Of a stretch of DNA of 53,862 nucleotides, positions 34,290 through 38,000 are shown piece after piece. Origin of the DNA: Ruminococcus sp. (GTDB lineage: Bacteria; Bacillota; Clostridia; Oscillospirales; Ruminococcaceae). The notes beneath the pieces were generated by a model. It made no database searches and had not been told where the DNA came from. It saw nothing but the letters and a program-made list of their open reading frames with translations. Both the position numbers and the translations under genes were made by a program. The DNA is taken from the NCBI GenBank assembly GCA_017470905.1, contig JAFUXL010000016.1:1-53862 (forward strand), written 5' to 3'. Every line of letters starts with the position of its first letter. Position 1 is the stretch's first letter.

Positions 34290-36401
34290 ATGGCTGATAC
34301 TTTTGAATTTAATGTAAATAATCTTGACTGCGCTCACTGCGGTGCAAAAATCGAAGCCCTGATTTCCGATATGCAGAGCATAGAAACCGCCGTTCTTAAT
34401 TTTCCGCTAAAAAAATTAACAGTGACCGGTGAAGTTGACGAAGAAACGGTAATGCTAATGAATGAGCTTGCAAAAGCAATCGAACCCGATGTTGAACTCG
34501 TTCAAATCGCAGAAAAATCCGAAAATCATACACATTCCCACGGAGAAGAGGACGGCTCGCTCAAATCGGAAATTATACTCCTGATTGTCGTGGTGCTTGT
34601 ATTTGTTTCGGCAATTATAATGGGAAAATTAAATCTGCCGTCCGCCGTAAGCCTTGTATTTTATATCTTATCATATCTGATACTTGGAAAGGATGTCCTT
34701 GTTTCGGCATTCAGGAGCATAAAATCGGGAAATTTCTTTGATGAAAACACCCTCATGACGGTTGCAACGATAGGAGCGTTTGCCCTCGGAGAATATTCCG
34801 AAGCAGTCGGAGTTATGCTTTTCTTCAAGATAGGCGAACTCTTTGAGGATTACGCAGTGGCAAAGAGCAGAAAAGCCATAACGGACGTTTCCGAACTCAA
34901 AGTCCCCGAAGCAGATGTTTTAATCAGCGGCGAATTTAAGCGTGTATCCTCCGACAAAATCAAAAAGGGCGATATTCTCCGCATAAAAGTCGGAGAGAGA
35001 GCTGCCGCCGACGGAATTGTCGAAACGGGCGAAAGCAAAATAGATACCTCCGCCGTGAACGGCGAACCCGTACCCGTTGTCATACGCAAGGGGGATGCTG
35101 TAATGTCGGGCTGTATAAACCTTGCGAATACTTTCACCATGAAAGCAACTGCCGCCGCAGATGAGTCAATGCTGTCGAAAATTGCAAAAGCCGTTGAAAC
35201 TGCCTCCGCCGAAAAGCCTAAAATCGACAAATTTATCACAAGATTTTCAAGGATATATACCCCCGTGGTGCTTGCTGCGGCATTCCTCACGGCTTTAATC
35301 GGCTCTCTTATAACTCATGATTTCCATAAGTGGATATACTCCGCACTGACATTCCTTGTAATAAGCTGTCCGTGTGCATTGGTTCTGAGCGTACCGCTTG
35401 CGTATTTTTCGGGAATAGGTGCGGCATCAAAGCTCGGAATTTTATTCAAGGGCGGAAATGCAATAGAGGCTCTTGCCAAAGTAAAAGCCTTCGTTTTCGA
35501 TAAAACAGGTACTCTCACGAACGGCACGTTCTCCGTCACGGAGATAAAATCATTCGGCAATATGTCGGAAAACGAAATTCTTGAAATATGCGCAGGCTGT
35601 GAGCAGTCCTCATCTCACCCCGTTGCCGAAAGCATCGTTTCGTATTGCAGGGGTAAAAATATAAAATTAAAATCCGCAGAAAGCCTCACGGAAATTGCAG
35701 GTCACGGAATATCCGCCGCAATGGACGGAAAAAATATCCTATGCGGCAACGAAAGGCTCATCAACGAAAATAATTTAACCGTTCCCGAAACGGAAAATTT
35801 CGCAGGCACTCCCGTTTATATCGCAGCTGACGGAAAAATCGAGGGGCTTATAATAGTATCCGATACGGTGAAAAATTCCTCCGCAGGTACAATCAAACAG
35901 CTTAAAGATATGGGGCTTTACACATCAATGCTCACGGGCGACAAGCAGTCCAATGCCGAAATTGTCGGAAAGCAGCTTGGAATAGACTATGCAAGGGGCG
36001 GACTTCTCCCCGATGAAAAGCTCACGGAGATAAACAATATCCGCAAAAATCACGGCGCAGTCATGTTCACGGGTGACGGAATAAACGATGCCCCCGTGCT
36101 TGCGGGCGCAGATGTCGGCGGCGCAATGCATACGGGCGCAGACCTTGCGCTTGAAGCGGCTGATGCGGTTTTCATGAACAGCGAACCCGAATCCGTTGTA
36201 AAGGCTAAAAAAATCGCCGACAAGACGCTCCGCATATCTTATGAAAATATAATATTCGCACTCGCAGTAAAGGCAATCGTGCTGATACTCGGAATGTTCG
36301 GACACCCGAATATGTGGCTTGCGGTATTTGCGGACTCGGGAACGGCAATGCTCCTTATACTCAATTCGATAAGGGTTTTAAATATCAGGAAATACAGATA
36401 A
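34290..36401 (+). CDS. cadA: Zn/Cd/Pb-exporting P-type ATPase
   Basis: 703 residues. A heavy-metal-associated domain at the N-terminus (LDCAHCGAKIE) is followed by a His-rich stretch (ENHTHSHGEE). The P-type core carries the CPC metal-transport motif (ISCPCALVL, ~360), phosphorylation site FDKTGTLTNG (~404), SSHPVAES and GDGINDAPVLA (~594). Eight membrane helices are expected for this PIB-2 class, which exports Zn2+, Cd2+ or Pb2+ using ATP. The start is set at the ATG after AAAGAGATG; the earlier ATG at 34257 lies at the transcription start and in the operator. Regulation by a metal-sensing repressor is very likely. zntA would be an equal name. Confidence 0.93.
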   Translation: MADTFEFNVNNLDCAHCGAKIEALISDMQSIETAVLNFPLKKLTVTGEVDEETVMLMNELAKAIEPDVELVQIAEKSENHTHSHGEEDGSLKSEIILLIVVVLVFVSAIIMGKLNLPSAVSLVFYILSYLILGKDVLVSAFRSIKSGNFFDENTLMTVATIGAFALGEYSEAVGVMLFFKIGELFEDYAVAKSRKAITDVSELKVPEADVLISGEFKRVSSDKIKKGDILRIKVGERAAADGIVETGESKIDTSAVNGEPVPVVIRKGDAVMSGCINLANTFTMKATAAADESMLSKIAKAVETASAEKPKIDKFITRFSRIYTPVVLAAAFLTALIGSLITHDFHKWIYSALTFLVISCPCALVLSVPLAYFSGIGAASKLGILFKGGNAIEALAKVKAFVFDKTGTLTNGTFSVTEIKSFGNMSENEILEICAGCEQSSSHPVAESIVSYCRGKNIKLKSAESLTEIAGHGISAAMDGKNILCGNERLINENNLTVPETENFAGTPVYIAADGKIEGLIIVSDTVKNSSAGTIKQLKDMGLYTSMLTGDKQSNAEIVGKQLGIDYARGGLLPDEKLTEINNIRKNHGAVMFTGDGINDAPVLAGADVGGAMHTGADLALEAADAVFMNSEPESVVKAKKIADKTLRISYENIIFALAVKAIVLILGMFGHPNMWLAVFADSGTAMLLILNSIRVLNIRKYR

Positions 36402-36431
36402 GCAAATCCCCCGTTCATCCGGGGGATTTGC
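36402..36431. terminator. Hairpin directly after the ATPase gene
   Basis: A perfect 11-bp inverted repeat, GCAAATCCCCC/GGGGGATTTGC, starts 1 nt after the stop codon. There is no T-tract after it, so it may act as an mRNA end rather than a full intrinsic terminator. It faces the - strand RNA terminator at 36447. Confidence 0.6.
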
Positions 36432-36446
36432 TATGAGAAATCACGG

Positions 36447-36478
36447 AAAAAAGCCCCGGACGAACAATACCGAGGCTT
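36447..36478 (-). terminator. Intrinsic terminator of the large RNA
   Basis: On the - strand, GCCTCGG/CCGGGGC with AA/TT flanks, then TTTTTT. It marks the 3' end of the noncoding transcript. Confidence 0.85.
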
Positions 36479-37182
36479 AATCTTTTATTAAGTTGTATAA
36501 GCGACTTTCATCACTTAGCTAAATTTCCTGTTGGACTCACCCTTTCAGTTCAGTATTTAAACATATACCTGAAATCTTTCATTAGAATCACATTCCTTCA
36601 CAGTAAATAAGCGATGCAAATTAAAAGCTTCTCATCGGACTCACCTTTTACTTCAAAATTCCGCATGATAAATTCAAACAAGCGGCACACGAAAAATCCG
36701 TGAAAATAATTTACAAATCGGAGAGAACGCAACCGATAACACGATTACAAAACGCACTTCTCATTGGAACCAAACCCTTACATAAGATTTTGATTTATCT
36801 AAAGACTCACGTCGAAATTTCAGATAATCCTGTACCTGTTTTCAACTCACGGACACAAGCCGCAGAGTTCAGACACGAAGCCGTTTTCATTCAGCAATAC
36901 GTCAGCTTTGCAATTGAATTAACCTTATGTACTTTCAATCAACGGAACAAGTCGCAAGACCTATATTCCCACTTTAAAAATCCAATTACTCGGCAAGCCC
37001 GCCGGCTTCACGCTGCTGTTCTTTAGTTTCTTCCATTGGACCCACTCACCTTTCCGCCTTGATTCATTTACATTGCCGCAATCCGCAGACGAAAACGCTG
37101 TTAAACACGATTACCGCCGACAGGAGCAGCAGACCAAGTAAATCTAGCTGTTCGGGATAACTCCTCGTTACTCCCTTTCCTT
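36447..37182 (-). ncRNA. Large structured noncoding RNA, unassigned (~735 nt)
   Basis: A transcription unit with a clear promoter (37189-37217) and a perfect terminator but no credible ORF in the sense direction. The longest start-stop is 16 codons (37036-36986). The 5' end folds as GGGAGTAAC...GTTATCCC. Inside, a motif like AAAGGTGAGTCC-AATG recurs at least four to five times (near 37053, 36780, 36649, 36599, 36545). A second motif, CGCTTGT or CGCTTAT, follows at spaced sites (36956, 36864, 36686, 36615, 36503). One module shows nested helices: AGTAAA/TTTACT (36647-36652 with 36602-36607) enclosing GATG/CATC. This looks like a multi-module folded RNA of the ornate large class (ROOL and GOLLD are known examples), but I see no feature that assigns it to one. 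It is not RNase P, tmRNA or SRP RNA. Confidence 0.75.
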
Positions 37183-37188
37183 GATTAT

Positions 37189-37217
37189 ATGATAACATAT
37201 GCTTTGTAAAAAGTCAA
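37189..37217 (-). promoter_or_regulatory. Promoter of the large RNA
   Basis: On the - strand, TTGACT (37212-37217), 17-nt spacer, TATCAT (37189-37194), with a second TATAAT overlapping 5 nt later. The 5' RNA hairpin follows within about 15 nt, so transcript and structure start together. Confidence 0.75.
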
Positions 37218-37327
37218 TAGTATTTTTGAAAAAAACCAAAATTTTCGGTGAATTTTGTCAGTATGCACAATTGCACAGTGTCACGATAATCAATATGCAC
37301 AAATAATAAATTGTTTTATATTTCCGC

Positions 37328-37356
37328 TTGCAATTTTCACGGAAATAGTGTATAAT
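37328..37356 (+). promoter_or_regulatory. Promoter of the DUF1292 gene
   Basis: TTGCAA (37328-37333), 17-nt spacer, TATAAT (37351-37356). It is divergent from the large-RNA promoter, ~110 nt away. Confidence 0.65.
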
Positions 37357-37409
37357 AATTATGCAAGCACACAAGCGCAAATTTGACGATTTTTAACAGG
37401 AGGAAAGTT

Positions 37410-37727
37410 ATGTCTGAAATGAACGAATACACACCCGACCTCTTTGAGCTTATCGATGAAGAGGGCAACAAGAAAAATTTTGAGCTTATAGATGCCGCAG
37501 AGCTTCACGGCGAGCAGTATTTCGCACTCGTCCCCGCCGCCGAAGATGAGGATTTCCTCGGAAGCGACTGCGACCCGGTTATACTCAAATCAATCTATGA
37601 AAACGATGAGGAAATTCTTGCGTCCATTGATGATGACGAGGAATTTGAAGAGGTGTCGGCGTTTTTCCTCGGACGCTTGCAGGAGGTTCTCGAAAATTAC
37701 GATGAATTTGACGAGGACTGGGAGTAA
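37410..37727 (+). CDS. DUF1292 family acidic protein
   Basis: 105 residues, very acidic (many Asp/Glu). It has the DUF1292 pattern: LFELIDEEGNKKNFELID, the EQYFALVPA strand and a late EIL..IDDDEEFEEV block. Common in Clostridia, often near alaS-yrzL-ruvX, and of unknown function. AGGAGG is 6-8 nt before the ATG. It stands alone here between two RNA genes. Confidence 0.88.
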   Translation: MSEMNEYTPDLFELIDEEGNKKNFELIDAAELHGEQYFALVPAAEDEDFLGSDCDPVILKSIYENDEEILASIDDDEEFEEVSAFFLGRLQEVLENYDEFDEDWE

Positions 37728-37803: not shown

Positions 37804-38000
37804 AGTGAATGAATATTCTGCCTTGTTCGAGTAATTATAGTTTTTATAATCCAACACATCTTATCAGGGAATACAGCTCCGTGCGTGGATTGCAGACCTC
37901 CCGCATTGCGGACGAAGGGAGCGTGAAGGGCATGGGCGTTTACCCACCTGCTTCGTGCGGGTTTTATGCACTATATGACGGCAAGGCGGATAATTTTTGC
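37804..38000 (+). ncRNA. ssrS: Probable 6S RNA
   Basis: About 195 nt between a strong promoter and a terminator. The 5' TTCTGCCTTG (37815-37824) pairs with 3' CAAGGCGGAT (37982-37991) to close the molecule. The interior has the long interrupted hairpin with an unpaired centre typical of 6S RNA. The pieces GTTCGAG, TACAGCTCCGT, GATTGCAGACC and TTCGTGCGGGTTTTA resemble Clostridia 6S sequences as I remember them. 6S RNA mimics an open promoter and holds the housekeeping RNA polymerase in slow growth. A 107-codon reading across the region has no ribosome site and I reject it. Confidence 0.7.

What the first reader, a model, noticed from the sequence alone, without database searches (positions are those of the whole stretch)
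36447..37217. Large, repeated-module structured RNA with its own promoter and terminator
A near-1 kb gene-free stretch between cadA and the DUF1292 gene carries a complete - strand transcription unit: TTGACT-17-TATCAT promoter, immediate 5' hairpin, and a perfect GC-rich terminator with six T. No sense ORF exceeds ~16 codons. A motif near AAAGGTGAGTCCAATG recurs about five times and pairs in spacing with recurring CGCTTGT/CGCTTAT words. At least one module folds as nested helices. This is the plan of a large ornate RNA. It could be a member of ROOL or GOLLD, or an undescribed class.
Basis: partly seen in the sequence, partly recalled or inferred. Interest (0 to 1): 0.88.

Follow-up and report, generated by a model that had tools for sequence, protein, structure and literature searches.

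The report
RNA built of tiny start-stop genes
A conserved, folded bacterial RNA of Ruminococcus and its relatives carries a row of ribosome-binding sites whose reading frames mostly end after one to four codons, which suggests that it works by engaging ribosomes rather than by encoding a protein.

Summary
Window 36447-37217 (-) holds a stand-alone, covarying, genus-wide RNA with conserved promoter and no Rfam match; nothing supports ROOL or GOLLD. The recurring motif AAAGGTGAGTCC[A/G] is a Shine-Dalgarno plus spacer followed, except in its last copy, by a start codon and usually by a very near stop. In the home genus 76 of 79 second modules, located without using the ATG, have ATG; 60 of those 76 stop at codon 4, by any of the three stops (at least 14 stop-to-stop against 7 stop/sense changes on a tree). 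The motif, blind to what follows, hits 44 of 388 family genomes outside the genus (24 genera). Of 50 distinct fetched sites, 46 close within 3 codons, five of them AUG-stop. Most of these loci have a divergent DUF1292 gene, and 13 of 20 scanned have 6S RNA nearby. One short version was seen in a second family. This looks like an undescribed RNA class: an array of SD-led micro-ORFs. My leading mechanism, inferred and not shown, is a ribosome-engaging decoy, a translational counterpart of 6S. No transcript or ribosome data were available.

The parts
37189..37217 (-). Promoter TTGACT-17-TATCAT, TG before -10; RNA start inferred near 37183 (CAAGGAAA)
   Evidence: Sequence; consensus; a promoter of this form heads 87 of 90 units
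36447..37183 (-). Whole RNA, about 737 nt (both ends inferred)
   Evidence: DNA matches in 110 of 125 genomes of the genus at E<=0.1, 67 of 68 of the best-quality ones (the weakest may be chance)
37066..37143 (-). 5' stem-loop domain: AUUUAC/GUAAAU stem enclosing a variable hairpin with compensatory changes
36986..37057 (-). Module 1: SD GGAAAGG...GTCCA and ORF-A, 16 codons MEETKEQQREAGGLAE*
   Evidence: Located in 84 of 90 loci: 76 ATG, 4 GTG, 4 others that look mislocated; 63 of 84 are exactly 16 codons
36877..37010 (-). Covarying core: UGAAGCCGGCG inside ORF-A pairs with downstream CGU and CGGCUUCA; ORF-A stop lies at the foot of the next helix; hairpin GGGAAUAUAGG/CUUGUUCC at 36944-36970
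   Evidence: 21 of 32 pairs change on both sides, 0 of 500 shuffles as high, score 0.343 against 0.058-0.092 with partners slid
36796..36829 (-). Conserved hairpin region GAUUAUCUGAAAUUUCGAC..GAGUCUUUAGAUA at the end of the core
36711..36781 (-). Module 2: SD and 17-codon ORF MRSAFCNRVIGCVLSDL* (3 codons, MRx*, in most relatives)
36621..36649 (-). Module 3: AAAAGGTGAGTCCG + ATG AGA AGC TTT TAA, minigene MRSF*
36550..36599 (-). sORF-B: SD GAAGGAATG and 10 codons MKDFRYMFKY*
   Evidence: Seen in the window. A later regex finds an ORF of this class in 53 of 90 loci, 45 of the 53 with 9-10 codons and at least one (L047) a false call; L001 was missed there because of its wrong terminator call
36511..36546 (-). 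Last module: GAAAGG-GTGAGTCC motif without the ATG; readable as GTG ORF VSPTGNLAK*
   Evidence: relatives have GTG, ATG or TTG at this place; coding status unsettled
36498..36516 (-). Hairpin AAGUGA-UGAAAG-UCGCUU before the terminator
   Evidence: Window sequence; same hairpin in many loci printed
36447..36478 (-). Intrinsic terminator, 9-bp stem with one G-U, six T
   Evidence: Sequence; terminators with other stems in relatives (calls imperfect)
37383..37727 (+). Divergent DUF1292 gene (PF06949), syntenic partner
   Evidence: homologue in 63 of 90 home-genus stretches, 62 upstream and divergent; divergent in 27 of 35 other-genus loci
37812..37996 (+). 6S RNA, neighbour
   Evidence: in the fetched stretch of 18 of 20 home-genus loci and 13 of 20 other-genus loci

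Best explanation
A stand-alone structured RNA whose working parts are a row of Shine-Dalgarno sites, each opening a micro-ORF of one to a few codons, plus ORF-A (about 16 codons) and sORF-B (about 10). Shown by comparison: conserved promoter and core helices, and selection on SD, start codon and near stop. Inferred: the RNA is transcribed and ribosomes initiate on these sites. Leading mechanism (inferred): because the codon after the start varies widely outside the home genus and is sometimes absent, the initiation/termination event itself counts. The RNA would be a ribosome-engaging decoy that holds or cycles initiation complexes, damping or buffering translation, as the neighbouring 6S RNA (recalled) titrates RNA polymerase. 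ORF-A runs through one strand of the core helices, so its translation would open the core and may gate the array. Confidence is about 0.9 for the anatomy and about 0.4 for the decoy; the figure here is for the whole.
For: Start: module 2, found without using ATG in 79 of 90 loci, is followed by ATG in 76 and GTG in 1. Stops: 60 of the 76 stop at codon 4; types TAG 29, TGA 17, TAA 15, counted with one ATA-start row; at least 14 stop-to-stop and 7 stop/sense changes on a tree of 78 rows; p 1.6e-5 against 2/9, approximate. All post-core modules: 97 of 128 distinct instances end within 4 codons, about 21% expected, 21 of 128 in frame +2; frame +1 is no control because ATGA gives TGA at once in 83. 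SD: duplex with the 16S end averages -8.6 kcal/mol over 92 distinct modules, -5.35 shuffled, -3.87 at 746 other ATGs; 16S end GGCTGGATCACCTCC found in G009 (1 of 4 genomes). Blind test outside the genus: 46 of 50 distinct sites close within 3 codons, 0 of 50 in frame +2; 33 of 37 after thinning alike flanks. Arrays expand: 70-nt unit x3.8 in L022, with four MR* copies. Synteny with DUF1292 and 6S.
Against: No expression or ribosome data. In single-sequence folds of 68 transcripts the SD GG is less unpaired (0.26) than background (0.39); AUG 0.455. The last home-genus module keeps the motif without ATG, so the motif may do more than initiate. The window's own module 2 is 17 codons. CC at -3/-2 of the start (5 of 166 ordinary SD-led genes) is not explained by ordinary initiation. 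The 6S link is only proximity. The core model finds nothing outside the genus, so homology across genera rests on motif and synteny.
Confidence: 0.5

Rival explanations
1. Ribosome loading on the micro-ORFs protects or matures an otherwise non-coding structured RNA (against RNases or Rho), and the folded core is the effector.
For: A two-codon minigene in axe-txe acts in cis, possibly by protecting mRNA (PMC8708949, abstract and passages). The core covaries strongly.
Against: The short version L247 keeps modules but shows no ORF-A or core recognisable by eye; modules persist in other genera where the core model finds nothing.
Confidence: 0.2
2. Translation-state sensor: a ribosome on ORF-A refolds the core, and the downstream micro-ORFs relay the state.
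For: ORF-A codons form one strand of core helices and its stop sits at the foot of the next helix; 63 of 84 ORF-As are exactly 16 codons.
Against: No protein gene follows in the transcript; the next gene in the window is convergent. The ORF-A peptide differs in some clades.
Confidence: 0.15
3. Peptidyl-tRNA drop-off or tRNA-sequestering RNA in the manner of toxic minigenes.
For: Second codon AGA in 74 of 128 home-genus instances. Toxic minigenes act through drop-off, more so with UAA (passages); TAA is the commonest stop over all home-genus modules (73 of 128) and outside the genus (31 of 47 short frames).
Against: Module 2 itself uses TAG most (29 of 61), against 8 of 166 ordinary genes (partly a clade effect). 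Outside the genus the second codon varies and five sites have none.
Confidence: 0.12
4. The micropeptides (ORF-A, sORF-B) are the products.
For: sORF-B keeps 9-10 codons in 45 of 53 calls and an MKxxRYxxK-like pattern in many.
Against: Synonymous/non-synonymous pairs for frames 0, +1, +2: 9 codons 77/147, 36/122, 23/220; 10 codons 57/169, 97/172, 40/206; no consistent excess in frame 0. ORF-A conservation lies largely in paired bases.
Confidence: 0.1
5. A purely non-coding structural RNA; AUG and stop are coincidental parts of an RNA motif.
For: CC before the AUG; motif without AUG in the last module.
Against: Three stop codons alternate at one place, GTG replaces ATG, and the pattern holds in a blind test outside the genus.
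Confidence: 0.03
6. A member of ROOL, GOLLD, OLE or raiA.
For: Size and complex fold only.
Against: No such Rfam match; none in viral contigs by pattern, phages or plasmids by blastn.
Confidence: 0.02

Closest known systems
Regulatory minigenes in mRNA (axe-txe mg2; lambda bar, recalled)
   Same: SD, start codon and a stop after about two codons
   Different: Those are single elements of an mRNA; here they form an array in a dedicated RNA with own promoter, terminator and conserved fold
Dual-function RNAs (SgrS, RNAIII; recalled)
   Same: Structured RNA with a short ORF
   Different: Those encode one functional peptide; here several frames, many of 1-4 codons, without a conserved peptide outside the genus
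6S RNA (RF00013)
   Same: Neighbouring gene; proposed analogy as a decoy for a core machine
   Different: 6S mimics a promoter (recalled); this would mimic start sites; no sequence relation seen
OLE, ROOL, GOLLD, raiA
   Same: Structured bacterial RNAs without a settled function
   Different: No Rfam match; I recall no micro-ORF array in them
tmRNA (RF00023)
   Same: Structured RNA with a short reading frame
   Different: No tmRNA found here; tmRNA lies elsewhere, over the cut-off in 10 of 12 genomes

Membership tests
ROOL / GOLLD | Match to the Rfam covariance model (that the library holds these models is recalled) | tested here: not met
   Not among window hits at gathering or E<=10, nor in 40 relative loci at gathering (20 each) or 6 loci at E<=1
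ROOL / GOLLD | Found in phages or prophages, often near tRNA islands (said of ROOL: passage in PMC12286853) | tested here: not met
   Housekeeping neighbours; 0 in viral contigs by two patterns, phages, plasmids
OLE | Match to the Rfam model | tested here: not met
raiA motif | Match to the Rfam model | tested here: not met
tmRNA | tRNA-like domain; Rfam or ARAGORN call | tested here: not met
   present elsewhere in relatives
Bacterial minigene | SD, start codon and stop within a few codons, under selection | tested here: met
Bacterial minigene | Actually translated | not testable with these tools
   Needs ribosome profiling or toeprinting
Dual-function RNA | Conserved structure with covariation | tested here: met
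Dual-function RNA | A conserved peptide product | tested here: inconclusive
Leader-peptide attenuator | A regulated gene downstream in the same transcript | tested here: not met
   Terminator at 36447-36478; next gene in the window is convergent

The most novel reading that the evidence does not exclude
An undescribed RNA class of Ruminococcus and its relatives: a ribosome decoy made of tandem start-stop minigenes on a structured scaffold, encoded beside 6S RNA and doing for ribosomes what 6S does for RNA polymerase. The shared essentials would be the SD-start-stop modules, since the folded core is not recognised between genera.
Probability: 0.35. Interest if true: 0.95.

Novelty: categorically new. 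Interest (0 to 1): 0.88.

Why it matters
Single minigenes are known, but I know of no natural RNA that is an array of SD-led frames of one to four codons (recalled; paper searches listed none). If translated, it is a dedicated interface between a structured RNA and the initiating and terminating ribosome in gut and rumen bacteria. It makes concrete questions testable: do cells use RNA to titrate ribosomes, and why is this RNA encoded beside 6S?

Tried and rejected
tmRNA substitute: rejected; tmRNA over the cut-off in 10 of 12 genomes. Antisense gene 36700-37026 (+): rejected; the frame has 5 stops in each of the two nearest relatives and stops in most other listed hits. Second copy in the own genome: only a promoter-like stretch before an ordinary gene. 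Two copies in L060: an identical 3844-bp repeat in one contig, probably assembly. GG..CC mini-hairpin around the SD: base combinations (T,T 74; A,T 14; T,A 9; T,C 4) do not prove pairing. Accessible SDs by folding: not supported. Spacers between modules fold a little better than shuffles (77 spacers, mean z -1.28, 33 below -1.5): suggestive only. Peptide as product: inconclusive. UUGG loop pairing with module starts: noticed, not tested. Motif outside the family: 5 genomes against 4 for the reversed control, chance level except L247 and perhaps L254.

Rows dropped or missed: of 110 genomes with a DNA match, 90 gave the loci studied; 20, mostly weak hits, were not fetched (G040, G061, G082 among them). 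Core alignment: 72 of 90 loci had both anchors, thinned to 56. Module 2 not located in 11 of 90, ORF-A in 6 of 90. The terminator script misplaced the end of some units, L001 included, so modules after that point were left out (L001 gives one instance). R1 on 35 home-genus genomes with weak or no hit: 5 at E<=1e-3, 4 only at E 0.35-0.94, 26 none. Of 63 motif places outside the genus, 12 were not fetched; the fetched ones were chosen with clusters in mind. One mend changed an estimate: stop usage over all modules and outside the genus favours TAA, so the drop-off rival rose from 0.10 to 0.12.

Full report
1. The observation. The minus strand of 36447-37217 has a promoter (TTGACT-17-TATCAT, TG before the -10) and ends in a hairpin with six T. 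A consensus scan of the window alone is not significant (3 promoter-like sites, shuffles 2.9) and does not list this hairpin. Conservation is the evidence. A DNA search of 125 genomes of the genus finds matches in 110 at E<=0.1 and in 67 of 68 of the best-quality genomes; the weakest may be chance. I studied 90 loci, one per genome. A promoter of this form heads 87 of 90 units. A script called a terminator in 76 of 90, some misplaced, L001 included. A pattern for the 5' motif found 92 stretches in named genomes; of 80 listed, 65 are titled Ruminococcus (R. flavefaciens FD-1, 007c, ATCC 19208 and MC2020 among them), 7 have vague or odd titles (such as Oscillospiraceae, Clostridia, Alistipes), and 8 are from unrelated phyla and look like chance.

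2. Not a known family. Rfam gives only 6S and three tRNAs in the window at gathering, nothing credible at E<=10 in 36000-37600, only 6S and tRNA in 20 home-genus loci, and only 6S in 20 other-genus loci. Six loci at E<=1, two of them also, add only sub-threshold matches. Two patterns found nothing in viral contigs; blastn found nothing in phages or plasmids.

3. It is structured. In 56 non-redundant sequences the core shows long-range helices with many compensatory changes. On alignment A1, 21 of 32 pairs change on both sides and 96.0% of cells pair; none of 500 shuffles reaches the observed values, and sliding partners by 1-3 columns lowers the score from 0.343 to 0.058-0.092. The structure was derived from the same alignment and leans towards itself.

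4. The motif is a ribosome-binding site with a micro-ORF. Except in the last module, the motif is followed by ATG and usually by a near stop. For 128 distinct post-core instances from 88 loci, chosen by GG, CC and ATG only, 97 end within 4 codons; about 21% is expected, and 21 of 128 do so in frame +2. Frame +1 is no control, since ATGA gives TGA at once in 83. Thinned to 6 or more differences in 33 nt, 68 instances remain. Module 2, located without the ATG in 79 of 90 loci, is followed by ATG in 76, GTG in 1, ATA in 1 and TAA in 1 that looks mislocated; 60 of the 76 stop at codon 4, the stops being TAG 29, TGA 17, TAA 15 with the ATA row. On a tree of 78 rows built from sequence upstream of module 2, stop type changes at least 14 times and stop/sense at least 7. 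At most 2 of 9 single changes would keep a stop by chance; the binomial p is 1.6e-5, rough because parsimony counts are minima. ORF-A was located in 84 of 90 loci: 76 ATG, 4 GTG, 4 others that look mislocated; 63 are exactly 16 codons. Where the core hairpin was recognised, the frame differs in 7 of 68, mislocated rows perhaps included; in clear cases such as L056, L080 and L085 the peptide changes while the frame stays short.

5. SD evidence. Duplexes with the 16S 3' end average -8.6 kcal/mol for 92 distinct modules (89 at or below -5); shuffles average -5.35 (53% at or below -5), and 746 other ATGs in these RNAs average -3.87 (212 at or below -5). The longest matches to the anti-SD complement differ between modules: AAAGG, AGGTGA, GAGGT, GGAGGT. 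The 16S end was found in 1 of 4 genomes searched. CC stands at -3/-2 of the start in 5 of 166 ordinary SD-led genes of the fetched stretches; the modules were selected for CC, so this shows only that CC is unusual.

6. Beyond the genus. Core model R1 matches 8 of 396 family genomes, all home genus, and 2 of 295 in the order sample, again home genus. It also finds diverged home-genus copies: of 35 genomes with weak or no DNA hit, 9 match at E<=1, 5 at E<=1e-3. There L203 and L205 keep the minigene MRL*, L203 also MK*, and by eye an ORF-A with GTG. The bare motif AAGGT(N)GAGTCCRATG occurs in 49 of 396 family genomes and 25 of 126 genera, 5 of these genomes being home genus; the reversed-pattern control is zero in every listed row. 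Of 63 places outside the genus, 51 were fetched, giving 50 distinct sites: 46 close within 3 codons (33 two-codon, 8 three-codon, 5 AUG-stop), 0 of 50 in frame +2. After thinning sites whose flanks differ at fewer than 25 of 60 positions, 33 of 37 close within 3 codons. Of the 20 loci fetched, chosen partly for clusters, 16 have two to five such minigenes on one strand and none on the other. An SD-led ORF of about 12-27 codons lies upstream in many.

7. Synteny. A DUF1292 homologue was found in 63 of 90 home-genus stretches, 62 upstream and divergent, and divergent in 27 of 35 other-genus loci; two pairs of the 35 are the same place. 6S lies in the fetched stretch of 18 of 20 home-genus loci and 13 of 20 other-genus loci. 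In the class sample 115 of 118 genomes have DUF1292; of the 30 best-scoring such loci, all outside the family, none has two or more motif minigenes on a strand and three have one.

8. Outside the family. In the class sample 9 of 341 genomes match the motif: four are family members, and five others compare with four for the reversed control. One of the five, L247 from another family of the same order, is convincing: divergent DUF1292, promoter by eye, two GTGAGTCCG motifs without ATG, MYT*, a 15-codon ORF, MYS*, terminator by eye. L254 (MRI*) is ambiguous; the other three open frames of 33 codons or more.

9. Mechanism. Shown by comparison: selection on SD, start and stop, and on the core fold. 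Not shown: transcription, translation, function. Since the residues vary outside the genus and five sites have none, I infer that the initiation/termination event matters, not the peptide. I favour a ribosome-engaging decoy or buffer, with ORF-A translation able to open the core. Weak points are the unsupportive folding of the SDs, the ATG-less last module and the purely positional link with 6S. Known minigenes offer two alternatives, protection in cis and drop-off toxicity (PMC8708949, abstract and passages).

10. Literature. Searches listed no report of this RNA; only open-licence PMC papers are held, and the 224-motif survey was not available. The main text of PMC11109978 does not mention Ruminococcus (passages seen, supplements not). 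Of PMC12286853 I saw passages only. lambda bar, SgrS, RNAIII and the action of 6S are recalled.

Noticed in passing
36401-36432: A 13-bp inverted repeat between this terminator and the end of the cadmium-type ATPase gene, probably that gene's terminator.
   Followed up: no
L022 1219-1480; L047 2935-3384: Tandem expansion of modules: 70-nt unit x3.8 in L022 (four MR* copies), 183-nt unit x2.5 in L047.
   Followed up: partly
L226, L236, L237: In other genera a sORF-B-like frame (e.g. MIRTKLMNI*) is followed by GTGAGTCC/GTGATTCC..ACTTTAGCTT-like sequence, readable as VSPPVTLA* or VIPPETLA*; the pair can occur more than once in one RNA (by eye).
   Followed up: partly
L060 273-4116 and 4115-7958: Identical 3844-bp repeat on an 8141-bp contig carrying two copies of the RNA; likely an assembly artefact.
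   Followed up: yes
37134-37142: Conserved UUGG in an internal loop of the 5' domain is complementary to CC(A/G)A at module starts; a possible start-site lock.
   Followed up: no
L002 1501-1555: A promoter-like stretch similar to that of the RNA precedes an ordinary gene in the own genome.
   Followed up: yes
L056, downstream of the RNA: By eye, a T-box-like leader follows this RNA's terminator.
   Followed up: no
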